A stretch of 64,000 nucleotides of DNA from Cyclobacteriaceae bacterium (GTDB lineage: Bacteria > Bacteroidota > Bacteroidia > Cytophagales > Cyclobacteriaceae): contig JAIBBC010000003.1 of NCBI GenBank assembly GCA_019694875.1, forward strand, positions 62,001 to 126,000, given 5' to 3'. The notes below the pieces were generated by a model. That model saw nothing but the letters and a program-made list of their open reading frames with translations. It was not told the origin of the DNA and searched no databases. Below are positions 40,987 to 61,286 of the stretch, in pieces. Numbering within the stretch: position 1 is the stretch's first letter; each line of letters begins with the position of its first letter. A program made the position numbers and the translations under genes.

Positions 40987-41003
40987 AGTAACAGGCATGT
41001 CGG

Positions 41004-41417: not shown

Positions 41418-41420
41418 TTT

Positions 41421-44400: not shown

Positions 44401-46451
44401 TCACCTGTTGCACTTCGATCAACAAAATCTGATCCCGTAATCGCGGTCAATAACCATGTGTTTGCAAAAGGATCGTTTCGCTTTATTTCTGTGTTCTTGT
44501 TCGAATCACTCTTGTCTTCTATCCGGGTCTTTTGATTGTAGTCATACACTGGCAGAGCGAAATGATACGTCAATCCGTCTGTTCCGGTAATTGTGTAACC
44601 ACCTATAGCAAGTTCAGATTTTGGGGGTGTCGGGGCCGATAAGAGAATATCTACTGACTTTCCAGTAACGCTTGTGAGGAAGTTTGCTGTGTTGACGGTG
44701 ACAGTCTTATTGGTAAGGTTGTACCCTTGGACTTGGCCTGTTGTGACAAGTGATGTCGGAGTACCAGTTCGCTGACCTGAAGCGTCCTTATCATAAATGG
44801 TTAATGTCATTGAAACGTTAGGTGCTGGCCCAGAGGAGAAATATGCTACGTCAATAGGGCTTTTCAGCTGAATCAACCCATTGGTAAAATCGTTGCTGGT
44901 TGCATTGAAGGTTTTAAATGCGCCAATTCCGGTGACTGCTCTAAACGCAACTCGCTCTGCTCCTGCAAAATAATCGATGAAACCAGAAGAGAACCCGTTC
45001 GGCGTATTCTTAATTTCGTCATTACTGAGCCATGTTATGTCGTTCCCTTGTGGTACTTTTTTTATCCCACTAACATCACTTCGAATCCGGTTTGTACTTC
45101 CAAAGATAATGTCATCAAAATTCAAAGTTTGGAGTGTGTTGTTTGATGGATTTGAATTGCTCTGGGTAGCAGTCAATCCATTGTCATAAAAGCTAGGTGA
45201 CGTTATCGCGGTAGCCGCGCCAACATGGTGATAATAGTTATTAGAAGGCGCGCCCTTGTAGATAAAAGGGACTTTGTAATCCTGATATTTCACGGGTGCA
45301 AACCGGCTATGTAAGGAAGACATCTTGCGGGGCATAGAAACGGAGCCGATGTCCAAACGATATGGCTGAATATATCCTGAAATCCCTCCAGCCATGACAT
45401 TATAATCGTCTAAAGCAAGGGTAGCCGGGCTCGTTGCATCGCTATAAGACTGGCCACTCGCCATATAATAATTGATATCACTTGCTGCTCCCTGATCGTT
45501 AGCGTTTGAAAATTTTTCCATTGAAGTTGATAAGCCGTTAACTTTAATCGCAAGGTTCACCCAGTCATCATTGTTTGTGAATGACTGCAAACTCTCGTTT
45601 GCCTTATGCAAATACAACGCCCCGTACATATCTTCCTGACGGGTTTTATCCAACCAAATCCAATAATTTTTGTGGAGAACTCTCTGTTGAGTTTCCTTTT
45701 TGTATTTCCAATACCCATTCGATGGTGCAGCAGGGGTTTGCCCACCGGCAATCATCGTCATGGCCATAGATGTGCCTTGCCCGATTGCTTCAAGTATTAA
45801 AGCTTCCTTAAAGGCAGTTGTGGCTTCAGCAATAGCCGCCGTTCCCAAGTCCTTGGCGGCTGCAATTTTGCCGTACGCTCCAACGATTGAGATAACGGAA
45901 GCAATTGTCAATCCTAATTGAATTGGGTTAACGGACACTCCCTTGTCGTCCCAAGACAATCCCAACAGACTAATTTGACCATAGTGCCCAGCTTGGCTGT
46001 CCCAACCAATGTTTCCTAAACCCAATAACGATGATGTCCAGCCACGCACGCCGGTAAGATCTTTGACGGTAATTTCCTGTGTCTCGCCTCCTGCATCATC
46101 CGGAAATCCCGTGTATTGTCTTGTTATTGCTCCCGCGTTCATGGTCCATCCCAAACCTACCCATGAGGCTTCCTGCTCAGTTCCAATACCTGCATTATAG
46201 GTAAGCGGAAGAGAAAAATCTCCACCGGGCGCTGGTACATCTAAGACTGGGATGCTAAAAGTAAAATCTCCTGTCACCAGGTTAACCATATCGCTTGAAC
46301 CAGGCGCCTCGTACGAAGTATACTCGGGCTGGTGCGGACCGGTTGTCAACGCAAAAACATAATGCGGCAGAAATGCGGACTGCAGTGTAACGACCAATAA
46401 TGTGATCGCTATTACTCGTAAAACTGCTTTGCTTCTTGGAAGTAGTACCAT
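41421..46451 (-). CDS. Giant exported Rhs-associated protein (N-terminal partner type)
   Basis: 1676 residues with a signal peptide or anchor (residues ~8-34, VLRVIAITLLVVTLQSAFL). The segment PEYTSYEAPGSSDMVNLVTG with FTFSIPVLDVPAPGGDFSLP is the hallmark opening of the large Bacteroidetes proteins that travel with Rhs genes. The length is filled with beta-rich repeats. Near residues 1540-1610 there is a carbohydrate-binding-like domain (SYYKSSVWTNSTNGRIYLK, VLFDDFRF). The C-terminus has a few YD-like repeats (YEYNERGQLVKTYIES). It probably forms a surface complex with the Rhs protein encoded downstream. No toxin tip is evident. Confidence 0.85.
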   Translation of the reverse strand: MVLLPRSKAVLRVIAITLLVVTLQSAFLPHYVFALTTGPHQPEYTSYEAPGSSDMVNLVTGDFTFSIPVLDVPAPGGDFSLPLTYNAGIGTEQEASWVGLGWTMNAGAITRQYTGFPDDAGGETQEITVKDLTGVRGWTSSLLGLGNIGWDSQAGHYGQISLLGLSWDDKGVSVNPIQLGLTIASVISIVGAYGKIAAAKDLGTAAIAEATTAFKEALILEAIGQGTSMAMTMIAGGQTPAAPSNGYWKYKKETQQRVLHKNYWIWLDKTRQEDMYGALYLHKANESLQSFTNNDDWVNLAIKVNGLSTSMEKFSNANDQGAASDINYYMASGQSYSDATSPATLALDDYNVMAGGISGYIQPYRLDIGSVSMPRKMSSLHSRFAPVKYQDYKVPFIYKGAPSNNYYHHVGAATAITSPSFYDNGLTATQSNSNPSNNTLQTLNFDDIIFGSTNRIRSDVSGIKKVPQGNDITWLSNDEIKNTPNGFSSGFIDYFAGAERVAFRAVTGIGAFKTFNATSNDFTNGLIQLKSPIDVAYFSSGPAPNVSMTLTIYDKDASGQRTGTPTSLVTTGQVQGYNLTNKTVTVNTANFLTSVTGKSVDILLSAPTPPKSELAIGGYTITGTDGLTYHFALPVYDYNQKTRIEDKSDSNKNTEIKRNDPFANTWLLTAITGSDFVDRSATGEANGVIDEYDWGHWVKFNYGLHSNDYKWRTPYAANTYTIDAENSSKTYSEGQKQTYYLNSIETRTHVALFFKDERNDNKDATGVVKSLKLTEINLLTKEAYKKLIADYAFPNVSGVLNVNLMSSHINATSDRQNFLYKNTLKRIKFNHSYSLAQGTPNSGSGKLTLDRLSVVGKNDMKFIPDYLFSYNGSNYNYDANKWDGWGMYTPDGDATNASHKASNSDSHGAAWSLTKVTTPSGAEIQIEYERDSYASVSGIPVTTAHRFDRDLSVAGGTSLNEIKVLASNCALKAGDQVRIVGSVVCLVGGTTVTFDQIKTVQSVVGTLVTFTSSFVTTPSCFGNNSKITGTIQPQSTSRKGGNLRVKSLTTSDGSIQKKIRYIYSEDETPTGLTSGVVAQEPDYINNDLETQPDNVNVPGFPVTPVMYKKVTVLSGNLSTDADYHTKEVYEFETPDESMITVSQSNPNTKTEIASNVVGFVNFRDYLTRVHNKISDRTSRMGSLKSIKVYDKSGVLQASTILTYTQDIINPNDLGVFSEGTLMVERVSEDNDKQIYKQTRTTVLKYPSVLKSVVTTKDGFTSKSENLKWDLYSSQVLEKLSTSPGGITTKSVTVPAYTKYSELGPKGLASTNKNMLSQETAQYVYRTDASGSVTGLISGSVITWNKDWLYRSYSSTTGTHENVTEGPGVWRKHKSYVWIGDVTRQKTDGTHTFSPSDEFAFGLGASNPGWKYLSEAKQYDHLTNPVESKDFKDMFSSSKFGYENRMVIAEASNAEYQEIAFSSAEDKMNTSPAFFGGEVAVGDGIVLRKSAAQVSEVHTGDAVVKVTGTGKSFTFKSKGIKPNSYYKSSVWTNSTNGRIYLKINGVDQPLSGAPQESIKVGNWYRITYEFKTPSSITSLEVGVTTTGGDVLFDDFRFQPSDAVMKCYVFDPLDFSYAPSATILTKYEYVLDNDNLFIKYEYNERGQLVKTYIESIRTKGVRQISESKTDYKRFHANP

Positions 46452-48375: not shown

Positions 48376-49578
48376 ATGCCCAACCTCCGGAAATCGTCCA
48401 CACTATCCAAAGCCACTCCCCGCGCCTCCCAAGTACTTGAAGACTATGATTATTGGCTCCAGAGGGAATACGGGAAATCTGGGACGTATCTCACCAATGC
48501 AAAGACATTCCTAAAAACGGTTAAGGCAGCCGGGACCGTCATCTCTCAGCTCGATACATATGCCAACGGTAAAAGCATTACGCTCCAGTCTTTCCTGAGA
48601 CGGTTGCGGAAGTTTCTGACTCTCAAAGGAATCGACTTCATTGTCAACGATCTCAATGAAAAGAAGCTTCCCATTAGCAACATTTACGTGAAGTTGTTCC
48701 TTGCCAGCAGACAGGATCGGTTACGCGGTGAACTTTCAAACAGCACTTACGCGACAGTCTTGAACGGGTATTTCAATTTTATCACGGACGACTTGAAATT
48801 CTTTAACAAGCGAACCGCTGAGAAGTATGTACTTTCCCCCGCTTCAGACTACACCAAGCGGCTTTACCGATCAGTTCTTAAGTCGTTTTGTCAATGGGCT
48901 CTTCTTTACCAGGAACAGAAGCTAACGGACCTTTCATCCGATCAAAAAAAGATTCAGAAAGGGCTAAAATTGATATCAGCACTATCACTGCGAGAGATAT
49001 CTTCGATTATTGTAAGAACGTCCCGATCGCAAATCAAGCGCTATCACAAGGAAAGCCTGACTGAATCTCAACGCGCCAAATTGTTAACTGCATGCGATAC
49101 ATCCAAAGAGAGGGCCATCATTAGTTTAATGGCCTGGAACGGGCTTCGGACAATTGAGGTATCCAGGCTCAACGTGCCTGACGTTGATTTTAATGAACGA
49201 AAACTCTCAGTTTGGGGTAAGGGAAAATCGAAGAAGAATAAAGATGTTATCAAACTTTTTAAAGTGGCGACTGCTGAAATCAAAGCCTATCTGAAGCAAG
49301 CGAGAATTCAATCAGGTTCATTGTTTCCGGGGTTGGGAAAGGGTGATATTTCAGCGTTGGTGAATCAACTCTACGACAAGGCGAAGTTGTCTAAGAAAGG
49401 AAAAAAGCTCACGCCTCACAGCCTTAGGCATACAGCTGGTCAAATAATGTACGACAAGGGTGTTCAATTGGAATTCATACAGAAGACACTAAGGCATTCT
49501 TCGATGGAGACGACTATGGTTTATGCGCAAAAGGCAATCGACAAAAATTACTTTCGAAAAATGCCCTATAAAATTTAA
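48376..49578 (+). CDS. Tyrosine recombinase / integrase
   Basis: 400 residues. The N-terminal ~200 residues form core-binding helices. The catalytic domain shows the first Arg in MAWNGLRTIEVSRLNV, a beta-hairpin Lys region (KLSVWGKGKSKKNKD), H-x-x-R in TPHSLRHTAGQIM, the second His in LRHSSMETT, and the nucleophile Tyr in TMVYAQKAID. All active-site residues are present. It is convergent with the ubiquitin/caspase operon (25 bases between the stops) and probably mobilises this island. I found no tRNA gene or clear direct repeat to mark att sites. Confidence 0.92.
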   Translation: MPNLRKSSTLSKATPRASQVLEDYDYWLQREYGKSGTYLTNAKTFLKTVKAAGTVISQLDTYANGKSITLQSFLRRLRKFLTLKGIDFIVNDLNEKKLPISNIYVKLFLASRQDRLRGELSNSTYATVLNGYFNFITDDLKFFNKRTAEKYVLSPASDYTKRLYRSVLKSFCQWALLYQEQKLTDLSSDQKKIQKGLKLISALSLREISSIIVRTSRSQIKRYHKESLTESQRAKLLTACDTSKERAIISLMAWNGLRTIEVSRLNVPDVDFNERKLSVWGKGKSKKNKDVIKLFKVATAEIKAYLKQARIQSGSLFPGLGKGDISALVNQLYDKAKLSKKGKKLTPHSLRHTAGQIMYDKGVQLEFIQKTLRHSSMETTMVYAQKAIDKNYFRKMPYKI

Positions 49579-49603: not shown

Positions 49604-50131
49604 TCAAGTCAATTTATTTTGTTTGAAGTAACCCTTTAAGTCTTTTGTCCCGCTACCGCACAACCCCTTTTGCTCCAATTGCCTGCACGCCTGAAGCGCC
49701 TCCCACGGAGTCAGGCCACATTTATCCGCCAGATCGATGTAGTGGATGTAGTCATTGGTTAGCGCGTGCAGTATATTTTGCTCCACACCGCGGTCAATCT
49801 CGCGATAGCTTTCGTCTTCCTGGTCAGTATGCGAGCACCAGTAAATCTTATCGTTCCACAAAATAAAATGCGAGCGGCATGCACTTGTTCGCCAATAAGA
49901 CGGGTAAAGTGTGCTACCGGATTGGCGTTGATAAAAACGCCATGCCGGCCCGGCCCTTTTGTCCAAATTGATTAGTAAGTCATCTCCACAACCGCATGGA
50001 CATCGCATTACAAGCAGCAACGGCCAACCGCGTTCGACAACCAGGTAATCGCCGGGATTCTGGTTTAATCCAAACGCTTCACGCCGAAAAGAAACGGTAC
50101 CTCTGTATGACACTCTGATTGCTCTTGTCAC
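49604..50131 (-). CDS. DUF6527-like protein, last gene of the ubiquitin-like operon
   Basis: 175 residues. The core VMRCPCGCGDDLLINLD and the later PSYWRTSACRSHFILWNDKIYWC resemble the DUF6527 family, with its cysteine-rich CPCGC knuckle and Ser/His/Cys-rich centre. The C-terminal third is a separate helical part (LADKCGLTPWEALQACRQLE) that may be a winged helix. DUF6527 proteins are known to travel with bacterial ubiquitin-like conjugation genes, where they have been proposed to act on the conjugates. Here the gene follows the kinase by 17 bases, so it is part of that operon. Confidence 0.65.
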   Translation of the reverse strand: MTRAIRVSYRGTVSFRREAFGLNQNPGDYLVVERGWPLLLVMRCPCGCGDDLLINLDKRAGPAWRFYQRQSGSTLYPSYWRTSACRSHFILWNDKIYWCSHTDQEDESYREIDRGVEQNILHALTNDYIHYIDLADKCGLTPWEALQACRQLEQKGLCGSGTKDLKGYFKQNKLT

Positions 50132-50148
50132 AATTCAAATAACAGTAT

Positions 50149-51696
50149 TTATTTCCGCGATAACAAAAATTTAATAATGCGCTCAGCCGCTACAAGGGCG
50201 TAGGCATGCATGTCAAACTGTAGTCGATCACGATAACTGTTGGCGTCAACGGCTCCAGCCAATCTTGCAATCCGAATAAGGTAACAGGCAGTAATCGCTT
50301 CCACTTCATCCTGGCAGCAATCACAACCCACCATTATATGACGCAACTCTCTGAGCGATCGACGCAACCAATCAAACTGGTCCGCCATACGGTCAGTATG
50401 CGCTAACGGGGTGAGCATACGCTCAGGCGCATAAACCTCGTCTATAAATGCTTTCCATTCATTGAAAAAAAAATCGCACTTATCCTGGGTGTTAAAGCTG
50501 CTATTGGCCGGTTCCGGAAGGTTGAATGCCAAGCTTACTTCAAGTGTTGCCGGATCAGCAGTCATCGGACCTGCGGGCTTAATGGCCGAAAAATCAATAA
50601 CTATTGCATCATTTCCCCGGACCATAATATTACCCGAATGCAGGTCCCCATGAACAGGGCTGGTAAAACAGCTCTCAGCGGTGCATTCCAACAGCGAGCC
50701 GCACAGGTCCGGAACTGACGTTGTAAGACCTAATTGCTTTGCGCGGTCAACGACATCAACCCGCTCAACAAGTTTTTCTGACCAGATTCTTTCCTTAACA
50801 AAATCACGCAAGTTGCCAGATCTCAAGCGATTGTCTGGCGAAAAAGGCCGCCGCCTGAACCCTTTTAGTGTCTTTTCAAACAATGAATAAATGATCCCTG
50901 TATAGTGGGTGTTCGCAAGTGATTGTGTCAACGGCAACGCATCTTCGACAAAATTCCCCACCAGGCTCCCGTAATGAGAGGTAAGAACACACCGTTCGAT
51001 CCTGCAATTGGGCCGATACTGGAAGGATATGTATAAATCAGTGTATACACGGTAGTTGGCTAGTTCATCTTTTGTTTTTTGCGGCGTCGATATCTTTACA
51101 AAAAATGGCAACAGCGATGATTTCACCATCGAATTGCGCTGCCAGGCATGAACCTTCAACAGATGACTCGAATCCTTACCTCCGGCAATACGCTCCACGT
51201 AGATGTTTGCGCAGTCGTAAAACGACCTTCTTAGAAGCAGCAGCTGCTCTTCATTTAACATCTGACATTCGCCCTCAAGAATTACGTCACTATCTGGCGG
51301 GCCTGGACTGTACCGGGCGATCGATTCTGCAAGTCGTACCAAGTCATTCTCAAGGTAAAAGCTCTCAATTTTCACGTTGATTTGCCGGAAACGCTGGAAC
51401 GCCAAATCAAATTCCTCGGTAGAGCGGACAACAATTCTTACCAGTATACCATGATCTAAAGCTTCCTCATACAATTGTTTGAGGCAGTTGGCAATAAAAT
51501 CCAAGTCATTTGGCTCGCCTGCAAGAATGATTGCCCTGGCGAACCTGAACGATGAACGCGCTTTCTCAAGTGTGGTATTCACCATCACTAGGTTGCGTTC
51601 CAAAAAGGCCTGATGAGAAAAACTCGTTCCGCCAATAACAAGCACGGTGTCTCGCTGGAAACTGCCGCGTCTTAGAGCATCGTCTTGATGTATCAT
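50149..51696 (-). CDS. APH/fructosamine-kinase-type kinase of the ubiquitin-like operon
   Basis: 515 residues. The N-terminal ~130 residues look like a Rossmann-type or receiver-like domain (TVLVIGGTSFSHQAFLERN). The remainder is an aminoglycoside-phosphotransferase-like kinase. The catalytic loop is VHGDLHSGNIMV and the metal-binding loop AIVIDFSAIK, which has DFS in place of the usual DFG/DLD. An ATP-binding Lys could be in LLPFFVKIST. The ternary-complex-associated kinase domain (TCAD9) found with bacterial caspases has this look, but I cannot verify membership. It would phosphorylate a protein or small molecule. The gene lies 13 bases after the E1 gene. Confidence 0.7.
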   Translation of the reverse strand: MIHQDDALRRGSFQRDTVLVIGGTSFSHQAFLERNLVMVNTTLEKARSSFRFARAIILAGEPNDLDFIANCLKQLYEEALDHGILVRIVVRSTEEFDLAFQRFRQINVKIESFYLENDLVRLAESIARYSPGPPDSDVILEGECQMLNEEQLLLLRRSFYDCANIYVERIAGGKDSSHLLKVHAWQRNSMVKSSLLPFFVKISTPQKTKDELANYRVYTDLYISFQYRPNCRIERCVLTSHYGSLVGNFVEDALPLTQSLANTHYTGIIYSLFEKTLKGFRRRPFSPDNRLRSGNLRDFVKERIWSEKLVERVDVVDRAKQLGLTTSVPDLCGSLLECTAESCFTSPVHGDLHSGNIMVRGNDAIVIDFSAIKPAGPMTADPATLEVSLAFNLPEPANSSFNTQDKCDFFFNEWKAFIDEVYAPERMLTPLAHTDRMADQFDWLRRSLRELRHIMVGCDCCQDEVEAITACYLIRIARLAGAVDANSYRDRLQFDMHAYALVAAERIIKFLLSRK

Positions 51697-51709
51697 TACG
51701 TCCAGTCAA

Positions 51710-53032
51710 TTATCCCTTTCGCCCCGGTAACGGCCAGGAATGAGCTTTGCAAAGACTTCCACTCTCCGAACACACTACACACGTATCCTGAGGCGGGCAC
51801 ACTACATGTCGCACTGTGCCGTTAATCGCGTTATAGGTAAGCGCCCTCGCCAATCCGGGCATTCCCAGTACACAATTAAGTAACATGGTAACAGACAAGG
51901 AGGCTATCGTCGAGTTAAGAGACATTACTGCCGGAGCAGGTTCATCTGCATCTACGATATATGGATCGCTTTTCCGTTCAAAGTCAGATAAGAGGTCCCT
52001 TCGCACTTGTTCGGGATCAAGGATGTTGCCGCAAACGAGGCAGCCCAAACCCGGCACAAGCAACTGCGTTCGGGCTGCGATGTCACGGATTGTACCCTTA
52101 TGCGTTGAGATTACAACTCCCATGTCAATAACAGGCAGAAGATACTGGTAGGCAAGTTGATTAATAACTGCGCGGCTACCGTGGGAATCCGTGCAGCAAA
52201 ATGATAAATCCGTATCGGCCAGAAATTCGGCCACAGTATTTTTATTGACGCTATCTTGAATTACTGAAACCCGCGCGTCAGGATTTATTTGCGTAATAAA
52301 TCGCTTTGCAAGATCAATTTTAGGCAGGCCAATATCCCTGCGGGTGGAACCTGCAACACGATTAAGGTTGGTTTGCTCAATTAAATCCGGATCAATGAGC
52401 AAAAACTTATTTACACCAAGGTGCGCGAGTTGTTGGGCGACAACCGAACCTGTACCCCCTAAGCCAACGATCCCGATCGTTAGCTCTCCAAGCACATGTT
52501 GACCTGCTTTGCCGAAAATCCGAACTTGTCGGTCGTATCGTGCGTCGACCGAGGTTTGCCCCTGCCAATAGAATTGGGTTACAGGGCCAACAACCGCGGT
52601 CTTTAAATATTGCGCTTTACCTAATAAACGTGAAATAACAGTGTCAGGCGTGATGAGCATGGACACATGATCTATGCCCGGTGTCCGTTGGGTGAAGAAC
52701 TCCTCCAGACGCGTCTCCCCCAAGTCGTCAGTGTCAGAAAATTGATTGAACGAAAATGGATGATTATGGACCAAAACAATCGAATCGCCCGTCCGGCGGC
52801 TTCGCTGGGCCAATTGAGCAATCAATTCGGATTTAACCTGGACGCCAGCAGGACCCCGGTAGTCGTACCACTCGTCGTCTATTGCCATTAGCTCAAATAC
52901 AACGATCCTGCTAAGCAAGTTCTCCTTTCTAACCGACCTGGCGAACATGACGGCGCAACGTTCGTGCTCGTCACGAAACAATGACTTCTTTAGATCTTCA
53001 AAAAATCTTAAAGGGATAACAAGTCTACTCAT
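51710..53032 (-). CDS. JAB (JAMM) peptidase fused to E1-like ThiF/MoeB activating enzyme
   Basis: 440 residues from the ATG at 53032. That ATG overlaps the E2 stop as ATGA, while the frame itself is open to 53053. The N-terminal JAB domain has VLVHNHPFSFNQFSDTDD, giving the H-x-H...S...D zinc site near residue 90. The E1 domain has GIVGLGGTGSVVAQQL (ATP loop near 190), LIDPDLIEQTNLNR, and a zinc site from CLVC and CVVC. Beyond the zinc cysteines I see no cysteine at the usual E1 catalytic loop, where the sequence reads DEPAPAVMSLNSTIA. It should adenylate the ubiquitin-like protein at 53403 and also trim or remove it. Confidence 0.88.
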   Translation of the reverse strand: MSRLVIPLRFFEDLKKSLFRDEHERCAVMFARSVRKENLLSRIVVFELMAIDDEWYDYRGPAGVQVKSELIAQLAQRSRRTGDSIVLVHNHPFSFNQFSDTDDLGETRLEEFFTQRTPGIDHVSMLITPDTVISRLLGKAQYLKTAVVGPVTQFYWQGQTSVDARYDRQVRIFGKAGQHVLGELTIGIVGLGGTGSVVAQQLAHLGVNKFLLIDPDLIEQTNLNRVAGSTRRDIGLPKIDLAKRFITQINPDARVSVIQDSVNKNTVAEFLADTDLSFCCTDSHGSRAVINQLAYQYLLPVIDMGVVISTHKGTIRDIAARTQLLVPGLGCLVCGNILDPEQVRRDLLSDFERKSDPYIVDADEPAPAVMSLNSTIASLSVTMLLNCVLGMPGLARALTYNAINGTVRHVVCPPQDTCVVCSESGSLCKAHSWPLPGRKG

Positions 53033-53406
53033 ACTGCCTGTTGAAGCCTGCATTTAATTACATTAAAATAAGTCATCAAATTATCCGTGTTTGGATTCCA
53101 TGAGGCTAAATGCCAGGAAAACCACCATCGCTGGTCGGACAAATGTGGAATTTGATTCTGCTGGCTATTCTGCGGCAGCCCGCCATTAGCCAGTCGCAGA
53201 TCAAAATCTGTCCAAAAGCAATCTGGCTTGGCAAGTGGGTACCCAACTGGAGCAATGAATACAACGTCTGTTCTGGCCTTATTCCAGCCCGGCGGCAATT
53301 CCACGGAAGGTACGGTAATAAGGTAGGAACCATCGGCAAGGCCAGTTATGGCTGCCTCCGGCCACAACACCCGCAGCTGTTCAAACTGACGCTCGATAGG
53401 GGTCAT
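53029..53406 (-). CDS. E2-like ubiquitin-conjugating fold protein
   Basis: 125 residues. PPGWNKARTDVVFIAPVGYP with LAKPDCFWTD matches the strand block and the YPxxxP turn of E2 folds. RWWFSWHLASWNPNTDNLMT is the conserved tryptophan-rich segment of the prokaryotic Prok-E2_E group. There is no cysteine at the standard active-site place. Only C63 (KPDCFW) and C119 are present, so transfer may use another residue or a variant site. The ATG overlaps the Ubl stop by four bases, and its own stop overlaps the E1 start. It would receive the activated ubiquitin-like protein and pass it to a target. Confidence 0.8.
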   Translation of the reverse strand: MTPIERQFEQLRVLWPEAAITGLADGSYLITVPSVELPPGWNKARTDVVFIAPVGYPLAKPDCFWTDFDLRLANGGLPQNSQQNQIPHLSDQRWWFSWHLASWNPNTDNLMTYFNVIKCRLQQAV

Positions 53407-53657
53407 TTCTGCATGCCAAAAGTTGCGGCTGGCACGGTATAGAGGTGCTTCGCTCCGTGCTCCAACGAAACTATTGAGTCTTCGGTAATGAGCAGGTCGG
53501 GTTCATTACCGTGGCCTTCCAGGTAAAGTGGATAAGCGCGCCGTTCTTCGGGCAATTTCACCTTAATTGCTGCCCCCGATATTTGTGGTTCCTGGTGTTC
53601 ATACTTTACACCATCTACGAAGTATAAGTACTTCCGATTTCCATGTTCCTTTTCCAT
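53403..53657 (-). CDS. Ubiquitin-like protein (Multi_ubiq type, single copy)
   Basis: 84 residues with a beta-grasp pattern: KYLYFVDGVKYEHQEPQISG, then GAAIKVKLPEERRAYPLYLE, then EDSIVSLEHGAKHLYTVPAA. This fits the Multi_ubiq family (F-x-V-D-G-x-x-Y, I-x-G-x-x-I, V-x-L), here as one copy. The C-terminus is TFGMQK. It has no GG, but one Gly is followed by a three-residue tail that the JAB domain encoded two genes later could remove. It is preceded by a 92-base gap, the largest in the operon, which might hold an internal promoter. The start is the ATG at 53657. Confidence 0.82.
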   Translation of the reverse strand: MEKEHGNRKYLYFVDGVKYEHQEPQISGAAIKVKLPEERRAYPLYLEGHGNEPDLLITEDSIVSLEHGAKHLYTVPAATFGMQK

Positions 53658-53749
53658 TCTAATATTACTGTATTATTGATAATAATTTATTACTAAACTT
53701 TAGCTCGCTCCTGCTTACCGTTATTTCTCCAAATCATTTCAAAATCAAA

Positions 53750-54580
53750 TCAATCGTTCGAAAAAAATGCGATCAGCGCTATCATTGCCAGCGCAGCGAC
53801 GGTGAACGTCAACATACCCGCCGGCTTTATGCTTTCTTGTTGGACAGGTTTGTTTATGCCTGTCAATCCTCGAATTGCAAATACAAACGGAACGGACAAG
53901 TTGCCCGTCCGATAAGCGACATCGGGTACTTGATCACTATCCAACTCGCGAAGTTTATGCGGTAAAAATTTCACTAAAGAGTCAATCGCGTAACAATCAA
54001 TTTGCTGATTGACGGGTTGCAATTGATTACACTCCTGTAATAGTGTATGAGTAAACATACCACCGTTCACGGTGTCGACAGAATACTGTCCAGGTTTGGT
54101 CGCGTGAATGATCATATGCCCTTCCGGCGAATTGACAATCATCTGATCAAATAGTTCCCGGGTAGAGTAAACTTCAAAGTGACTTTCATGTTGGCTGAAG
54201 TCAGGAATACCGTCTAGCCCGCCCCGAACAAAATTTCGGCAGGCATCCACGATCACCAGTTGCTTTCTCGATTTTGTCAGCAACTCCAAATCCTGCATGG
54301 GGTGATCCCGCAAAACAATCATTCTATTACCGGTTTCAGCATCTGTGAATCCATGACCGAAAAAGTAAATCATGACATAATCTTCATGACACCAAACGAT
54401 TCGCAACGCCAGCTCGCTCCAATTCGGGTTTGAGAGAACTGATATCTCTTGCGGAAGCCAAGACCCGCCTTTTGGAGATTCGAGAAATTCTCTCATCATC
54501 CTTAAATCGCTAGCCGCGCCATAGAGATGATTTTCACCGCTGCCAGGAGCACCAATTAAAATTGCTCGTCTTGTTACCAT
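53750..54580 (-). CDS. Caspase-like (peptidase C14) protease with C-terminal membrane anchor
   Basis: 276 residues. The fold begins RRAILIGAPGSGENHLYGAA (loss of the usual ..VGINxY, but same strand). The catalytic His is H76 in YFFGHGFTD, and the nucleophile is C114 in LVIVDACRNFVRG. Later blocks are MIIHATKPGQYSVDT and GGMFTHTLLQE. Both active-site residues are present. The last 22 residues (GMLTFTVAALAMIALIAFFS) form a single transmembrane tail anchor, so the protease faces the cytoplasm from the inner membrane. It is 12 bases after the triple-TM gene. In this setting it is probably the death effector or a processing enzyme of the ubiquitin-like pathway. Confidence 0.88.
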   Translation of the reverse strand: MVTRRAILIGAPGSGENHLYGAASDLRMMREFLESPKGGSWLPQEISVLSNPNWSELALRIVWCHEDYVMIYFFGHGFTDAETGNRMIVLRDHPMQDLELLTKSRKQLVIVDACRNFVRGGLDGIPDFSQHESHFEVYSTRELFDQMIVNSPEGHMIIHATKPGQYSVDTVNGGMFTHTLLQECNQLQPVNQQIDCYAIDSLVKFLPHKLRELDSDQVPDVAYRTGNLSVPFVFAIRGLTGINKPVQQESIKPAGMLTFTVAALAMIALIAFFSND

Positions 54581-54592
54581 AAACTCTTGGTA

Positions 54593-55150
54593 TTACTTTC
54601 CAGTGCCATTCATTTCATCTTCCAATTGTTTCTCCTGGCGTTGCAAATTGGAAATTTCATTTTGCAGCTGAGCGATCCGCATGGGGTTAAATTTATTTCG
54701 GCGATAAACCCACGAGGTAATATATTCTTCAAGTTGCCGCATGATAAAATTAAATGTAAACACACGGGATTTGAACAGCAGTGTAAGGAGCGTACCGGCT
54801 AATGTAATAACAAAGAATGCATGTGAAAGCGATTCCATCGCTGAAAAGCCATTTAATAGAAAGACTATATAGATCGCTGTTGCTGCCGTTAAGAAGATCA
54901 ATTTCCCCGCAAACACAAGCCTGCGACTTTTTGTGTCGAGCCTGCGTTTGGTTGCTTGCTCAGTATTCAGTTGGTGAATTCTTGCCTCAATCTTTTCGCG
55001 TACCTGGCGCATCCGACTGGCTACCGTCTCAACTCCATGTGAAGCTTGATCAAATAGCCAGTTAAAAAACAAATAAAGTCCATAAAGAATTAACGGCACT
55101 GCCAATACTACAAGCAGGATCTGCAACGCGTCATACCTATTTCTTTTCAT
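54593..55150 (-). CDS. Triple-TM protein with coiled coils, partner of the caspase
   Basis: 185 residues from the ATG at 55150, preferred because AAGGAG lies just before it. The ATG at 55162 is four codons upstream. One TM helix is near the start (ALQILLVVLAVPLILYGLYL), then a helical coiled coil (VASRMRQVREKIEARIHQLN), two more TM helices (RLVFAGKLIFLTAATAIYIV and AFFVITLAGTLLTLLF), and a terminal coiled coil (RIAQLQNEISNLQRQEKQLE). No known family. It stands directly before the membrane-anchored caspase, so a membrane complex of the two is plausible, with pore or scaffold function. Confidence 0.65.
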   Translation of the reverse strand: MKRNRYDALQILLVVLAVPLILYGLYLFFNWLFDQASHGVETVASRMRQVREKIEARIHQLNTEQATKRRLDTKSRRLVFAGKLIFLTAATAIYIVFLLNGFSAMESLSHAFFVITLAGTLLTLLFKSRVFTFNFIMRQLEEYITSWVYRRNKFNPMRIAQLQNEISNLQRQEKQLEDEMNGTGK

Positions 55151-55183
55151 GCTCCTTATCATAAATCATGTCAAACATAAAAT

Positions 55184-56182
55184 CTAAATAGCCTTTAAAC
55201 TAAACGCATCGAGGTAATTCATCAGTTTTCTACCGGCATGGAAATTTTTTTGCCAAACGTCTTCGTTATGACTCCAATGAATAAGCTGATCGGTCGCCAT
55301 TTTACCTAGTTTGGTGACTACCAGGTTTAGTGAATCCAATTCCTCTGATGTAAAGATGGCTTCATTGAAATCTTTTGTTTCCGTACGCTGAAATTGCTCA
55401 CCCACAGCATTCTCGAACAAGCGTCGTGTAACCTTAACACATTGCTTCTGCTCCAGGTACTCAAAAATACTTTGAAAGTTATTTGGAACAGGCCCCATAT
55501 CGATGGCGCAGTACCTTACGCCGCTGATCGAAAAACCTGTTTTCTTGAAGTTATAGAAGTCTGAGTAAAAAAGAAGTTTATTTAACTTTGTCTTATAAGG
55601 CTGAATACTTGAAGCAAAAAAGATGACCATTTCAGAAAACTTCTTTAAATCTGGCTTTCTGAAACCGGACTCTTCATCCGGATCCGGGTTGCCCATAAAA
55701 TAAGCTTTCAAATCAAAGTCTATCTTATTTTGATTCTCCATGAGCTCCTGAACCCGCCTTAAAAGTCTTTCCTTTTCTTTGGGTTTAAGAATATCACTTC
55801 GTTCAACCATTTCTCCAAACTTTGACGGATCAAATGCGAAATCAAGAATGAGTGCGTTAGCAAGTGACGGTATTTCCCCGGACTCATAATTCCTATACGT
55901 GTTAACTCCAAAACATAAAATTTCGGATATACGGGTAGGTGTTAACTCATATTTGTCCCGAAGTTCAACCAACTGTTCAGGAAATGGAATTCCATGTCTT
56001 ACCCGGTATTGATTGTAAAGCGTTTCCAGGTTAAGTTGAGCTATTTTCTCATCCTCAAACCTCTCACCGCTATCTTCACATAAGTAATATTGGTAAACCG
56101 TTTCGAACTTCTCTTTTCGAAATTCAGTCTCGACCAATTCTACCTTCTTCACCATTTCCTTGCCTGTGATCGGGCTTTTCAT
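55184..56182 (-). CDS. Antitoxin with MqsA-like HTH and Panacea (SocA/DUF4065) domain
   Basis: 332 residues. The N-terminal part (MKSPITGKEMVKKVELVETE) stands in place of a zinc finger but lacks the full cysteine set. It is followed by an HTH: LTPTRISEILCFGVNTYRNY and ESGEIPSLANALIL. The C-terminal Panacea domain shows KLNKLLFYSDFYNFKKTGFS, CAIDMGPVPNNF and QLIHWSHNEDVWQ. Panacea proteins neutralise many unrelated toxins. The toxin gene lies seven bases upstream (56190-56540). The HTH should bind the palindromes at 56580-56631. It is followed after about 33 bases by the membrane protein of the ubiquitin/caspase operon. Confidence 0.85.
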   Translation of the reverse strand: MKSPITGKEMVKKVELVETEFRKEKFETVYQYYLCEDSGERFEDEKIAQLNLETLYNQYRVRHGIPFPEQLVELRDKYELTPTRISEILCFGVNTYRNYESGEIPSLANALILDFAFDPSKFGEMVERSDILKPKEKERLLRRVQELMENQNKIDFDLKAYFMGNPDPDEESGFRKPDLKKFSEMVIFFASSIQPYKTKLNKLLFYSDFYNFKKTGFSISGVRYCAIDMGPVPNNFQSIFEYLEQKQCVKVTRRLFENAVGEQFQRTETKDFNEAIFTSEELDSLNLVVTKLGKMATDQLIHWSHNEDVWQKNFHAGRKLMNYLDAFSLKAI

Positions 56183-56189
56183 AACTTAT

Positions 56190-56540
56190 TTAATTTTTGT
56201 ACGGATATTTCATTGGTGTCACCGGAAAATGAAATGAAATACATAACACCTCATTGCCTGGGTGGCCCATTGTAATTTTGATATAAATTTCTCTTGCCCT
56301 AACCGTTCGTCCGAATACCCACATGCATGCTCCGTTATAAAGTCTTTCAGTTATCGGCCCATCACAATAGTCAGACACCGCGAGTCTACCAAGTTCACCT
56401 TTTACCTGAATGACAGATAATTCCAACTCCTTCAACGTAGCGTAATTCTTTTCCCTGTCCGAACGGAATATCACTCCCCAAAACTCTAGCTTCTCCTTAA
56501 ATTCTTTAAGAAAACTCTCAATTTCACCAACCGTAGCCAT
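56190..56540 (-). CDS. Small putative toxin paired with the Panacea antitoxin
   Basis: 116 residues, soluble. The C-terminal half (GACMWVFGRTVRAREIYIKI, then ISFHFPVTPMKYPYK) is a conserved-looking block that I associate with toxins encoded just before MqsA/Panacea-type antitoxins. I cannot name the catalytic residues, and it may be an RNase of the MqsR/RelE fold. Toxin-first order and a seven-base gap to the antitoxin fit the mqsRA arrangement. The promoter and operator elements lie 30-90 bases upstream. It may be only a two-gene addiction unit that happens to sit before the caspase operon. Confidence 0.7.
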   Translation of the reverse strand: MATVGEIESFLKEFKEKLEFWGVIFRSDREKNYATLKELELSVIQVKGELGRLAVSDYCDGPITERLYNGACMWVFGRTVRAREIYIKITMGHPGNEVLCISFHFPVTPMKYPYKN

Positions 56541-57342: not shown

Positions 57343-59337
57343 TTATAACCACTCCCTAGGAACCAATGCGTTGTCCCCGCTCCACTCTTCTACAAGATGG
57401 ATATTATTGATGCCCTGCCAAGTGATTTCTGGCGCGTGTTCAACAATTATTATTTGCACGTTTCCTTTAGTACGGGTCAAACAATTGGCGGCTGCGCTGA
57501 ATATCTTTCTCGTTTGTGTTAAATCGTCCAATTGAGAACTATAATCTTCGAACGTCTTAATATTCTTATTAACTTTTGGGATGTCCTTAGGAAAATAGAC
57601 CTGACTGGGTTGATCAATGAAAAGAAACGATGGTACCGGGTTTTGCTTCGCTCCGCTAAAATGTTCATGTAATGCGAAAGCAGTTGAAAGATGATAGCCC
57701 ATCCAATTTGCACCACTACCAACTTCCCACAAATAATCCTGCCGACTAGATGTCGATGATAGAATCTTCAATGTCAAGTTTGTAATATCAAGTTCAACGG
57801 CGTCCGTTGGGCGATCAATGTCCAGCATAGCTACGTATGTGGAAATCAGTCCCGATATTTTTCGGAGAATGTTTTGCTGACTGTTCTTCGATTTAATTTC
57901 CCGAAGTTTCTCTCGTTTATCATCGAGTTGGGCTTCGAGCGCTTTGATATCATTATCAAATGAGCTGTCAACGCCTATTGCTTCAACGTTCTCAAGTTGC
58001 TGCTCCAGACGCCCCACAAACCGATAGATTTCTTCAATGGATTGTCGCTTTTGTTTTTCAGCGTCAGATTTTCGATAAAAATCACGCATGACCTCACGCA
58101 CATCACTGAGATCAATTTCCAGCGACCGTATTTCCTCTTTGACTTCAGAAATCTCTTTGTCCAAGTTCACATCGGGAGTATTAATGGCATTAGACACAGT
58201 CTCCAGGTTTTGATTATAAACGTGAAGCATCTCAATTTGCTTTTTAGCGGTTTCATTTTTTGATTCACAAAACGGACAATACTCGTCCGTGAGTTTCTTT
58301 TTAAACCAACTGACGGGCTCAAGTCTTTTCTGCTGAACAGTGACAGTTTGTTTGTATTGAGTCGTTGAAGTACTCAACTTCTGCAGTTTCAGCAATCTAA
58401 TTTTCCGCCCACTAATCTCACCCTGCAATCTGCGCTCTTCGTCTTCAAGTTTTTTCTGTCGCTCTACGTCCACTTCACTCGTTCCTCGCTGGAAGTCCGG
58501 AATAGGGTTATCTCTAAAACCATTAACCACCTGTTGCAAACGTTCTAGATACTGCGAAGTATCAAATTGTTCATTGTTCGTGGAGATATCTTTCATCAAT
58601 CCAAGTTGGATCGATCGAGAGTATAATGCCTTAAGATTGTTCAGCCACGTGTCAATAGCCTTTTTCCTGGCAGCAAGCTGGCCTTGTAAATTCTTAAGAT
58701 TTGCTTCCAACGATTTAATTTCCCGCTCAAGCATCAGAGCCTCATTATTTATGGCACCGATGAATAACGGAAAAGTCGTCTTGAGGCGCTGCTGATGTTC
58801 ATATGTATCAGCTTTGTAGAACAAGGCGTACGGATTCGCAACGATGTGCTGTGGTTGAAACTGAAAAGCACTTGTATCCCGAAAGCTCGCCGCACTTGTG
58901 AATCCGTTCCTCACATTCTCGTCAAAACGTTCGTTTGACAGTCCTGAAAGTTGATTCAATCTATTGACGACAACGTCACGATTTGCCTTTGGCTTTTTCT
59001 CTAAAGCCTCGTTCAAATCAAGTGCTCCGGCTTTCTCGTACATTATCATTTCGCCAGTTGACGTATGATTACCAGGTTCACGCCTGAACAGTACGAGTTC
59101 AGTTGAATCCGTTATTAAATGCAAACCAAACCATTCAGTCTTTTCCCGGATTACGCCTACCGGAATCGAGCATTTATCACTACCGAGACAATAGTCAATG
59201 ATATGGACCAGTGCCGATTTTCCTTTGTGACTTTCCCCAGTAATGACATTTACCTTATCCAACGAAAATTCTACAATGCGAACATTTTTGGATTCATCCT
59301 TAGGAAGCAAAAAGACTGATTTTATCTTCAGTTTCAT
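57343..59337 (-). CDS. DUF3732/Rad50-like ATPase of an ABC-three-component system
   Basis: 664 residues. Walker A is GESHKGKS (residues 34-41), in KVNVITGESHKGKSALVHII, typical of DUF3732. Two long coiled-coil arms flank a central CxxC (DEYCPFCESK near residue 350), which looks like a Rad50-type zinc hook. The signature, Walker B and later motifs are in the last ~150 residues (GSGANWMGYHLSTAFALHE, FLFIDQPSQVYFP, IIIVEHAPEI). It is the third gene of the operon and would act as the DNA- or signal-sensing ATPase that controls the two small partners encoded upstream. Confidence 0.85.
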   Translation of the reverse strand: MKLKIKSVFLLPKDESKNVRIVEFSLDKVNVITGESHKGKSALVHIIDYCLGSDKCSIPVGVIREKTEWFGLHLITDSTELVLFRREPGNHTSTGEMIMYEKAGALDLNEALEKKPKANRDVVVNRLNQLSGLSNERFDENVRNGFTSAASFRDTSAFQFQPQHIVANPYALFYKADTYEHQQRLKTTFPLFIGAINNEALMLEREIKSLEANLKNLQGQLAARKKAIDTWLNNLKALYSRSIQLGLMKDISTNNEQFDTSQYLERLQQVVNGFRDNPIPDFQRGTSEVDVERQKKLEDEERRLQGEISGRKIRLLKLQKLSTSTTQYKQTVTVQQKRLEPVSWFKKKLTDEYCPFCESKNETAKKQIEMLHVYNQNLETVSNAINTPDVNLDKEISEVKEEIRSLEIDLSDVREVMRDFYRKSDAEKQKRQSIEEIYRFVGRLEQQLENVEAIGVDSSFDNDIKALEAQLDDKREKLREIKSKNSQQNILRKISGLISTYVAMLDIDRPTDAVELDITNLTLKILSSTSSRQDYLWEVGSGANWMGYHLSTAFALHEHFSGAKQNPVPSFLFIDQPSQVYFPKDIPKVNKNIKTFEDYSSQLDDLTQTRKIFSAAANCLTRTKGNVQIIIVEHAPEITWQGINNIHLVEEWSGDNALVPREWL

Positions 59338-59338
59338 T

Positions 59339-59818
59339 TTAGAATTTTATTTTCAGCGTTATACAGATTTGATCCTCGGAAACAGCGGCGAACCATCGAC
59401 CTAGTCGGTCCGCACCTTGCACAATTTTCTTAATATCCTCATTATACTTTCCAGTTGTTACCGGGGTTTTGATGGGGAGCAATTCATTCAACTCTTTGCT
59501 GTAGGTTAGAATTTTTGACTGATAGGCCAGATTAAGTGCTTTAAAAGTTTGGATTGACATTTCCTCCATTCGCTGTTGAAGTCCCGCTGGCATTTCTCGG
59601 TAGTCGCTGAGCGCATTGAAAAAGCCACCCTCGAACGCTCGTCCGTAAATTGAATTGAGTGTGGCACGATGATACAACAATGGAAGAACCGGCATTGCTA
59701 ACGCCAGGCTTGGACCCCGCAGATTCTCGTTTTTCGCATAGAACGAATTGACAAACTTGTTAAGCGCAAGCGCGCCTATGCCAACATTTTGAATAATATC
59801 GTGCTCTGTTAATATCAT
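59339..59818 (-). CDS. Middle component of an ABC-three-component system
   Basis: 159 residues, helical, starting MILTEHDIIQNVGIGALALN with the pattern NSFYAKNENLRGPSLALAMP and VLPLLYHRATLNSIYGRAFE. This resembles the small 'middle component' proteins that link the effector and the SMC-type ATPase in ABC-3C defence systems. No catalytic motif. The start overlaps the stop of the upstream gene by one base, and the ATPase gene starts one base after its stop, so all three are tightly coupled. Its presumed role is to bridge the other two. Confidence 0.8.
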   Translation of the reverse strand: MILTEHDIIQNVGIGALALNKFVNSFYAKNENLRGPSLALAMPVLPLLYHRATLNSIYGRAFEGGFFNALSDYREMPAGLQQRMEEMSIQTFKALNLAYQSKILTYSKELNELLPIKTPVTTGKYNEDIKKIVQGADRLGRWFAAVSEDQICITLKIKF

Positions 59819-61002
59819 TATTTCTTAAACAAATCCGTCCATTTTGGATGCCACCCTATCTCGAGTCTGTCTGAAAGTTTCAGAAAGCTCCCCTTGGTAA
59901 AATATTCCTCTGTATCAAAGCCTCTCAGTTTACACAAGTATCCATTAAGTGTTTCATCGTATATAGCATGCGCGAGTTTGCCCATTTCTTCGTCTGACAT
60001 ACTAATGTTATAGCTTGTCATCTTACGTTGAAATGCAGTCTTCCAACGCTCATGGCTAGAAAAATCCATTGCGGCTAATTCAATGGATGTGATTTCACCT
60101 TCCTCTACTAACTTTGAACGGTGATGCTCGCAGAGCAAAAAGTCAGTGATAGCATCAACAATGATTTCATTTTTCAGTGGATGCTCGATTGCTTCGAGTT
60201 GCTTAACGAACGTTGAATCAATCTTTGCAGTTTCAATTTCCGCATCCGAGACGGGACGCTCCTTTTGAACGAGGAGTTTCGCCAACACTTTAACCCGTTT
60301 GTCACCTACCTTCTGCCGTGCGTGCTGCACACGGTTATTAAAATTTTTCTTCTTAATCAATGGAGCCTCACCCTTATCAAATGCCGCGAGGATTACTTCA
60401 TTGAGCCAACCTCGGAGATCTGTAATAACATCCTTTTTGATATCATCATTTAAGCCAAGCTTGTTGGCAATCTCTTCAGTTCGTTCAGTGAGGTCGCTTT
60501 CTTCAACTAGAGTAATTTGAGTTAAGAGACGTTTTGCCAACGCATCGTCATTCAATACGTTTGTCACAAAAGGCTTGATGGTATCCGATGGTTTCTTTCC
60601 CGCAGATTTCAATAGCTTGAAAGCCTTTTCGACATCCTTCGATGTGACCGCGGCCGAGATTATTTTTAGTAGGGATTGCGGGTCGAGTGCCTTGTTTGTC
60701 ACGCAAACGAGGCGTGTGGATTCAGGAATGAGCTTGCCCGATTTACAATCATCTGTCCAAATCGAAAGTGTATTCCACAGTTCCCGGCTTCGATCCGTCA
60801 ACGGGCTCCCAGTTGCCACGATACTATGTTTATCCTGCTCTCGATAGGTGACCTCGCCTTTGGCATCCATGATAGCCAGGTCATCGACCATTTCAATTGA
60901 AATGCTTTCATCATTATTGCAGGCGCACAGCAATACCAACGCCCTGTCGGGTTGAAATAAGTATCCGGCCATCTGGCCAGGTGCTGTATGCACTTGCGTC
61001 AT
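59818..61002 (-). CDS. Effector of the ABC-three-component system, DUF4297-like N-terminus
   Basis: 394 residues from the ATG at 61002. A TTG three codons upstream is less likely. The N-terminal domain (GQMAGYLFQPDRALVLLCA, SIEMVDDLAIMDAKGEVTY, REQDKHSI and LTDRSRELWNTLSIW) resembles the DUF4297/Cap4-type nuclease fold, where E-x-DD and Q-x-K are catalytic. Here QDK replaces QVK, so activity is likely but not certain. The C-terminal half is helical and ends in a domain that resembles ABC-3C CTDs. It is the first gene of the operon and most likely cleaves DNA when the ATPase signals infection. Confidence 0.7.
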   Translation of the reverse strand: MTQVHTAPGQMAGYLFQPDRALVLLCACNNDESISIEMVDDLAIMDAKGEVTYREQDKHSIVATGSPLTDRSRELWNTLSIWTDDCKSGKLIPESTRLVCVTNKALDPQSLLKIISAAVTSKDVEKAFKLLKSAGKKPSDTIKPFVTNVLNDDALAKRLLTQITLVEESDLTERTEEIANKLGLNDDIKKDVITDLRGWLNEVILAAFDKGEAPLIKKKNFNNRVQHARQKVGDKRVKVLAKLLVQKERPVSDAEIETAKIDSTFVKQLEAIEHPLKNEIIVDAITDFLLCEHHRSKLVEEGEITSIELAAMDFSSHERWKTAFQRKMTSYNISMSDEEMGKLAHAIYDETLNGYLCKLRGFDTEEYFTKGSFLKLSDRLEIGWHPKWTDLFKK

Positions 61003-61286
61003 GACTGCCAACTATAAATAAACAAACCTTTCAGCTTCAACTGAAGGGAAATAAACATTAGAGGCAATTTCAGGCGGGCTACAACTTACGCGTTGTCAAG
61101 AAATTGCTCGGTCAAATTAGCAATTGTTTAGATTTTCCTCAAACATTATAACATATTGATTATCAATTACTAATATTAAAAATATGGAGATATTTTTCGT
61201 CTGACAGTAATTGTCAGGCATGGAGACGAGATTTGTAATCTTTGCCGTCGGGCAATTTAATTTTGCAAACAGAAGCCGAATTGAGC

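What the first reader, a model, noticed from the sequence alone, without database searches (positions are those of the whole stretch)
49604..55150. Ubiquitin-like conjugation operon coupled to a membrane-anchored caspase and a kinase
Seven adjacent minus-strand genes encode, in order, a triple-TM coiled-coil protein, a tail-anchored caspase with an intact His/Cys pair, a single beta-grasp Ubl, an E2-like protein, a JAB-E1 fusion, an APH-type kinase and a DUF6527-like protein. The Ubl, E2 and E1 genes overlap as ATGA, and the rest are 12-17 bases apart apart from one 92-base gap. Bacterial Ubl systems (CBASS type II, Bil, Bub) and bacterial caspases are each known. I know of no described system that joins both with a kinase and a membrane partner.
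Basis: partly seen in the sequence, partly recalled or inferred. Interest (0 to 1): 0.88.

Follow-up and report, generated by a model that had tools for sequence, protein, structure and literature searches.

The report
Bacterial ubiquitin-like operon joined to caspase
A bacterium carries a ubiquitin-like protein-tagging operon with its own kinase directly behind a membrane-anchored caspase; the tagging part is a side branch of a known bacterial pathway, and relatives of the caspase also sit beside other ubiquitin-like systems, so it may be their killing arm.

Summary
The seven genes are real and in the stated order. They are two parts. (1) A five-gene core, Ubl–E2–E1/JAB–kinase–DUF6527, found in 29 other loci of at least four phyla (kinase in 22 of 28 readable, DUF6527 in 26 of 26). 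It is homologous to the solved Bub pathway (BubCD 1.8e-58, BubB 5.6e-8) but its E1 forms a separate clade (100/100) with four extra cysteines, an E2 cysteine that Bub-type E2s lack, a Ubl ending in FG and an APH-like kinase. (2) A caspase with a C-terminal membrane anchor plus a three-TM partner, seen at none of the 29 loci (24 show at least 4.4 kb upstream). But the same tail-anchored caspase family sits beside another Ubl/E1 operon in two relatives and beside an E2-bearing CBASS operon in a third: 3 of 4 other tail-anchored members found. So the caspase looks like a swappable effector of Ubl/E2 systems, here joined to an imported core. Ubl–caspase coupling was predicted before, in another architecture (Kaur 2020). 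All function is inferred.

The parts
53403..53657 (-). Ubl, one beta-grasp domain, 84 aa, ending ATFG-MQK (conserved FG plus 3-residue tail)
   Evidence: FG within 4 residues of the stop in 28 of 28 loci that have a Ubl gene; 15 end exactly at FG, 13 carry 1-4 more residues
53029..53406 (-). E2-like protein (Prok-E2_E / BubB homologue) with Cys63 in PDCFW
   Evidence: Cys in 7 of 7 E2s not found by a Cys-requiring pattern (window plus 6 plasmid loci)
51710..53053 (-). JAB-E1 fusion (BubCD homologue); likely start at codon 8 (53032)
   Evidence: H96/H98/S106/D109 and Cys287/338/341/425/428 in 28 of 28 rows, window included
50149..51696 (-). APH/TCAD9-type kinase, 515 aa, variable N-terminal part plus kinase domain
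   Evidence: E211, H349, D351, N356, D368 in 17 of 17; K201 in 16 of 17
49604..50131 (-). DUF6527 protein (weak winged-helix match in its C-terminal part)
53750..54580 (-). Caspase (Peptidase_C14) with C-terminal membrane anchor, His76/Cys114
54593..55162 (-). Three-TM protein; no credible homologue found; likely start at codon 5 (55150, by look)
55184..56182 (-). MqsA-like HTH plus SocA/Panacea protein, 21 bp upstream of the TM ORF; possible regulator, membership uncertain
48376..49578 (+). Tyrosine recombinase facing the 3' end of the operon; possible mobility gene, not part of the system

Best explanation
A ubiquitin-like conjugation operon, probably for defence, of a Cys-E2/kinase clade next to Bub, carrying a caspase-membrane-protein pair as its effector in this lineage. 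Proposed working: the JAB domain trims the Ubl to its FG end; the E1 adenylates it; Cys63 of the E2 takes it, perhaps straight from the adenylate because no spare E1 cysteine is invariant; the Ubl is put on a target and taken off by JAB. The kinase, with its variable front part, and DUF6527 select or license the target. Conjugation or its release switches on the tail-anchored caspase at the membrane, which cuts its TM partner or host proteins and stops the infected cell. Shown here: anatomy, homology, conserved catalytic residues, clade structure, recurrent neighbourhood of the caspase. Inferred: conjugation chemistry, kinase substrate, caspase activation, antiphage role.
For: Core homologous to solved BubCD and BubB. 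Gene order Ubl-E2-E1-kinase-DUF6527 kept in Pseudomonadota, Deinococcota, Verrucomicrobiota and FCPU426. JAB H96/H98/S106/D109 invariant in 41 of 41 E1 rows; kinase residues invariant; kinase best read as ancestral to the clade with two losses. Caspase 12 bp from the TM gene and 92 bp from the Ubl on one strand. Caspase homologues in two relatives (42-44% identity) lie 2.8-2.9 kb from E1-JAB genes of Ubl-E2/E1 operons; a third, tail-anchored, lies next to a CBASS E2, CD-NTase and HNH-SAVED. Defence surroundings: Lamassu/ABC-3C genes at 57343-61011; relatives near CBASS, HMA and type III RM genes. WYL or HTH-M78 regulators upstream of two relatives scanned, of the kinds reported to control Bub operons (PMC13373217, passages).
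Against: None of 29 other core loci shows the caspase (for L025, one of the nearest, the contig ends about 250 bp upstream, though its genome has no Peptidase_C14 match at all). Core and caspase/TM differ in G+C (0.47-0.49 against 0.455 and 0.416) and in nearest relatives, so they were probably joined recently. In the two relatives the caspase is in a divergent operon. The CBASS operon already has an HNH-SAVED effector, so the caspase is not its only one. The JAB glutamate position is E in only 15 of 28 rows and D in 9. Bub operons have not been shown to stop phage (PMC13373217 passage). The TM gene has no homologue to test.
Confidence: 0.57

Rival explanations
1. Two independent units side by side in a defence island: a kinase-type Bub-like operon, and a caspase-membrane pair that belongs with the MqsA/Panacea gene upstream or stands alone.
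For: Core seen at 29 other loci without the caspase. The TM ORF is 21 bp from the Panacea gene, the caspase 92 bp from the Ubl. G+C falls stepwise from core to Panacea gene. Caspase relatives also occur with other TM partners or a helicase and no Ubl genes seen and near ABC-3C-like and type ISP genes. 13 of 22 core genomes carry Peptidase_C14 proteins somewhere, so caspases are common in these bacteria (not mapped to the operons).
Against: 3 of 4 other tail-anchored relatives sit by Ubl/E2 genes. Two of four order relatives within 5 kb of an E1 has a chance of about 3e-4 if three E1 loci per genome are assumed (clustering of defence genes is not controlled). The scan shows no terminator-like site on the minus strand in the 92-bp gap, but such sites are no commoner than in shuffles, so this weighs little.
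Confidence: 0.31
2. The caspase acts inside the tagging cycle rather than as a killer: it trims the Ubl tail or cuts Ubl-tagged proteins.
For: The window Ubl has a tail (MQK) after FG that would have to be removed.
Against: 13 core loci have tailed Ubls and no caspase seen, and 15 have no tail; H96/H98/S106/D109 of JAB are kept in 28 of 28 rows.
Confidence: 0.07
3. A stress or quality-control pathway, not defence.
For: Bub operons have no shown phage protection and answer to DNA-damage regulators (PMC13373217 passages).
Against: Patchy spread, plasmid carriage and defence-gene neighbours.
Confidence: 0.2

Closest known systems
Bub (bacterial ubiquitination-like) pathway, Citrobacter BubB/BubCD (PDB 9ea4, 9ea5, 9eav, 9eae)
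   Same: E1-JAB homologue along profile positions 3-391 (E=1.8e-58), E2 homologue, multi-ubiquitin-type Ubl; DUF6527 downstream in the Enterobacter plasmid operon
   Different: E2 has Cys where BubB has Met; E1 has two extra CxxC pairs; Ubl and E2 are separate genes; APH-like kinase between E1 and DUF6527; caspase pair upstream
Operon type 6e of Iyer et al. 2006 (PMC1779556, passages seen)
   Same: Ubl repeats, E2-like protein, JAB-E1, metal-binding protein
   Different: Its E2-like domains were described as lacking the Cys; no kinase or caspase in the passages seen
FtsH ternary systems of Kaur et al. 2020 (PMC7159879, passages seen)
   Same: Predicted coupling of a full Ubl conjugation set with a caspase effector
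   Different: Coupled by EAD1 with vWA, MoxR, FtsH and a RING E3; none of these was matched in the window genes of 48.4-61.0 kb
EACC1-caspase two-gene system (Kaur et al. 2020)
   Same: 5' membrane protein and 3' caspase pair
   Different: Caspase scores 30.5 bits against a 140-bit cut-off; no EACC1-named match for the TM gene
Caspase-nuclease (canu) and nuclease-protease pairs (PMC12799240, passages seen)
   Same: A protease module taken up by several unrelated immune systems
   Different: No MBL nuclease among the window genes scanned; the partner here is a membrane protein

Membership tests
Bub | E1-JAB fusion homologous to BubCD | tested here: met
   E=1.8e-58, profile 3-391 of 448
Bub | E2 homologous to BubB | tested here: met
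   E=5.6e-8
Bub | E2 without cysteine at the active position, as in Citrobacter BubB and 11 of 11 Ubl-E2 proteins of E1-found loci in the window's order (a feature taken from these sequences, not from a published definition) | tested here: not met
   Cys in the window and in 6 of 6 plasmid E2s; also in 22 genome loci, where the search pattern required it
Bub | E1 inside the Bub-type clade | tested here: not met
   split at 100/100 from 13 Bub-type rows; midpoint root, so 'sister' is not proven
Bub | CapW, CapH+CapP or CapK+CapS upstream (reported for a part of Bub operons) | tested here: not met
   Window has an MqsA/Panacea gene further upstream instead; WYL or HTH-M78 in two relatives scanned
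Bub | Covalent Ubl conjugation | not testable with these tools
   Needs biochemistry
Bil (BilABCD) | Separate JAB and E1 genes, E1 with a catalytic Cys (as told in PMC11354881, passages) | tested here: not met
   E1 and JAB fused; no invariant E1 Cys beyond C287 and the two CxxC pairs
Type II CBASS | CD-NTase in the operon | tested here: not met
   No such match among genes of 48.4-61.0 kb
Caspase / Peptidase_C14 | Over the Pfam cut-off with His/Cys dyad | tested here: met
   (45.1 bits, cut-off 21.4)
FtsH ternary Ubl-caspase system | vWA, MoxR, FtsH and EAD1 | tested here: not met
   No such Pfam match in the genes of 48.4-61.0 kb
EACC1-caspase system | Caspase of the EACC1-associated type and an EACC1 partner | tested here: not met
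   30.5 bits against a cut-off of 140; no EACC1 match

The most novel reading that the evidence does not exclude
Tail-anchored caspases are a dedicated, exchangeable death effector of bacterial ubiquitin-like conjugation: one caspase family is wired to three kinds of E2-bearing system (kinase-type Cys-E2 operon, Met-E2 Bub operon, E2-bearing CBASS), so that tagging of a protein controls a caspase at the membrane, with a kinase as a further input in the window's version. This would be a bacterial counterpart of ubiquitin control of caspase death signalling.
Probability: 0.35. Interest if true: 0.87.

Novelty: new variant of a known kind. Interest (0 to 1): 0.63.

Why it matters
It marks out a clade of bacterial ubiquitin-like pathways with an E2 cysteine and an operon kinase, beside the solved Bub pathway whose E2 lacks that cysteine, so the two chemistries can be compared directly. 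It also gives a testable link between ubiquitin-like tagging and a membrane-anchored caspase in bacteria: three kinds of gene neighbourhood point to one effector family.

Tried and rejected
Rejected: the TM protein as an EACC1 homologue (no match; in 390 genomes one other weak hit, E 5.9e-5 with stops inside). P2 of L053/L054/L057 as a relative of the window Panacea gene (hhalign probability 1.2%); P1 as related to the sigma-like gene of L037 (0.14%); P2 as related to the next gene of L037 (0.54%). P2's rear half matches DarG and type I RM models instead. The 254-aa CBASS gene of L056 had no Pfam match and no useful PDB match; it is called E2 on PADLOC models alone. No relative found: E1 and E2 in viral contigs. 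E1 in 387 genomes of the Limisphaerales phylum gave only the known locus (1 of 387 at 1e-60). Two further window proteins gave nothing in four genus relatives, with no positive control.

Limits found on checking: the genome scan used one peptide pattern that holds DCFW, so the E2 Cys in those 22 loci is forced by the search; the unforced count is 7 of 7 (window and six plasmid loci found through E1). Upstream DNA is short or absent in L025 (about 0.25 kb), L036 (1.1), L030 (1.3), L034 (1.9), and L021 lacks Ubl and E2; the other 24 of 29 show at least 4.4 kb. The check of the small gene of L054 used the wrong frame; the right frame, read, shows a short TM protein like that of L053. Rows dropped: L031 (E1 lost to an insertion) from the kinase count; L031, L036, L045 (insertion or contig end) from the DUF6527 count; L022 (E1 in two frames), L031 and L023 from the E1 tree; L023 (30.7% identical) from the core set. 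Of 13 close plasmid records (H1-H13) seven were fetched; H1-H7 look like near copies. Of five Leptospira plasmid hits two were fetched.
Full report
OBSERVATION. An MqsA-like HTH plus SocA/Panacea gene (55184-56182) ends 21 bp upstream of the TM ORF and was not in the finding. The window lies in a 4.68-Mb genome, contig C4.

THE CORE. Tblastn of the E1 on plasmids found 103 records at 1e-20; of the 20 listed, 13 are 39.8-44.1% identical. Seven were fetched. Six show Ubl-E2-E1/JAB-kinase-DUF6527 (L022 with its E1 in two frames); the Roseomonas one lacks Ubl, E2 and kinase and has IS21 genes on both sides. An E2 profile scan of the 84,980-species collection matched 65 stretches and confirmed 22 loci, in Pseudomonadota, Verrucomicrobiota, FCPU426 and an unplaced bin. 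Over these 29 loci the kinase is present in 22 of 28 readable ones and DUF6527 in 26 of 26; some are near copies (Bradyrhizobium L016, L033, L034). Five Sphingomonadales/Rhodoblastus loci and the Roseomonas one lack the kinase. No ORF in these 29 loci matched the window caspase (BLAST or phmmer at 0.01) or a nine-row caspase profile at E up to 10, which matched only L053-L056. Upstream DNA is at least 4.4 kb in 24 of 29. Of the three loci nearest by E1 (L024, L025, L045), L025 has almost no upstream DNA, but none of the three genomes has any Peptidase_C14 match; 13 of the 22 genomes do, at places I did not map to the operons.

RELATION TO BUB. The E1 profile matches Citrobacter BubCD at 1.8e-58 and the E2 profile matches BubB at 5.6e-8. 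BubB has Met where the window has Cys63. Cys is present in the window and in 6 of 6 plasmid E2s found through the E1; it is also in the 22 genome loci, but there the search pattern held DCFW, so those do not count as evidence. Met stands in 11 of 11 Ubl-E2 proteins of loci found through the E1 in the window's own order. The split shows also in the E1, where no pattern forced it: Cys338/341/425/428 in 28 of 28 rows (window and 27 loci), against Ser, Thr, Asn, Asp or a gap at 338, 341 and 425 in 13 of 13 Bub-type rows, four of which keep a Cys at 428. The E1 tree of 41 rows parts the two at 100/100; the window groups with L024, L025 and L045 (95/96); the kinase is best read as ancestral to the Cys clade with two losses (midpoint root, and one long row, L076, flagged). 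Besides C287, shared by the Bub-type rows, and the two CxxC pairs, no E1 Cys is invariant; a Cys at 33 is kept in 22 of 28. JAB residues H96, H98, S106, D109 are invariant in 41 of 41 rows; the glutamate position is E in 15 and D in 9 of 28. The Ubl ends in FG plus at most four residues in 28 of 28 loci with a Ubl gene: 15 stop at FG, 13 go on, as the window does with MQK. That the extra Cys bind zinc and that the E2 Cys takes the Ubl are inferences. The Bub papers cited in PMC13373217 (Gong 2025, Ye 2026) were not read: Ye 2026 is not held and Gong 2025 did not come up; what they say of Bub subtypes is unknown to me from the calls.

THE KINASE. E211, H349, D351, N356, D368 are present in 17 of 17 and K201 in 16 of 17 aligned kinases, with a variable front part (17 of the 23 known, window included). 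Pfam calls it TCAD9/APH. Solved relatives are weak and lie around the catalytic motif: 2pyw, an uncharacterized protein (2.4e-4), a PI3-kinase regulatory subunit (1.1e-3), maltokinase (0.0051). Substrate unknown.

THE CASPASE. In 390 genomes of the order the caspase has homologues in four others at 1e-6; the E1 rings in nine of the 390, own genome included, at 1e-30. A phylum sample of 395 adds four genomes at 1e-10, plasmids five Leptospira records, viral contigs two. Those of G019 and G144 lie 2.9 and 2.8 kb from E1-JAB matches of the Met-E2 type, as the last gene of a divergent set: two conserved proteins, a short TM protein, then the caspase. The first two proteins (55-58% identical) also flank a Bub-type operon of the window's own genome without caspase (L057). 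The caspase of G024 lies next to a CBASS E2 (PADLOC 2e-51), a CD-NTase and an HNH-SAVED protein; as HNH-SAVED is itself an effector, the caspase is not the only one there. That of G146 lies near ABC-3C-like and type ISP genes. These four and the window have a C-terminal hydrophobic segment (5 of 5); the seven others scanned lack it. Four of the latter (L071, L073, L079, L080) pair with a homologous 263-298-residue protein with one to three hydrophobic segments (E 7e-13 to 4e-51), the Leptospira one with a short one-segment protein. In L070-L075 no match to the window's Ubl, E2 or E1 was seen; L079 and L080 were only read as ORF lists. So a membrane link is the common theme, and three of the four other tail-anchored caspases stand by E2-bearing systems. 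A binomial with three E1 loci per genome assumed gives about 3e-4 for two of four order relatives within 5 kb of an E1; clustering of defence genes is not controlled.

JOINING. The core has G+C 0.47-0.49, the caspase 0.455, the TM gene 0.416, the Panacea gene 0.392. The caspase's nearest relatives found are in its own genus and family, those of the core in other phyla. The simplest history is an imported kinase-type core set behind a local caspase pair. Promoter and terminator scans decide nothing here.

LITERATURE. The listings of searches showed no paper that I could see to describe this gene set; the library lacks most subscription papers. Kaur 2020 (passages) predicted Ubl-caspase coupling in FtsH ternary systems. 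PMC13373217 (passages) reports 544 Bub operons, DNA-damage regulators and no shown phage protection by Bub. PMC12799240 (passages) shows protease modules moving among immune systems.

VERDICT. Two real modules: a core clade beside Bub with its own kinase, and a membrane-anchored caspase pair whose family recurs beside Ubl/E2 systems. Joint function is likely but unproven.

Noticed in passing
57343-61011 (-): Lamassu/ABC-3C type set: LmuA-like (59818-61011), LmuC/MC3-like (59339-59818), LmuB/DUF3732 (57343-59337).
   Followed up: partly
55184-56540 (-): MqsA-HTH/SocA-Panacea gene and a small gene with a weak MqsR toxin match (E 0.064, below cut-off); a possible toxin-antitoxin pair or regulator.
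   Followed up: partly
L057 and L058 (G000:C1:1135000-1152000 and 1619000-1636000): The same genome carries two more E1-JAB/DUF6527 operons of the Met-E2 Bub type; one (L057) has the two divergent partner genes without a caspase.
   Followed up: partly
L037:4477-9222; genes of similar size upstream in L029, L032, L038, L040, L042: Upstream of the Cys-E2 operon in L037: a gene with a weak sigma-70 region 4 match, an unknown gene, and a UvrD helicase fused to an IrrE-type peptidase and a PD-(D/E)XK nuclease (only L037 scanned, the others by size).
   Followed up: partly
L079:3180-4747, L080:7140-8753, L071, L073: Caspase plus a homologous TM protein as a two-gene pair, also on two viral contigs; could be a phage-borne defence or exclusion module.
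   Followed up: no
48376-49578 (+): Tyrosine recombinase facing the operon; no exact direct repeat of 14 bp with copies over 3 kb apart in 46.4-60.5 kb, no tRNA gene in the window.
   Followed up: partly
35344-46451 (-): Two very large ORFs (1884 and 1676 aa); the second was used once as a query, neither was studied.
   Followed up: no
L027:3164-9391: HmaB-like methylase gene and a HEPN_Swt1/DUF499 gene directly upstream of a Cys-E2 operon: an HMA-type defence set next to the Ubl operon.
   Followed up: no
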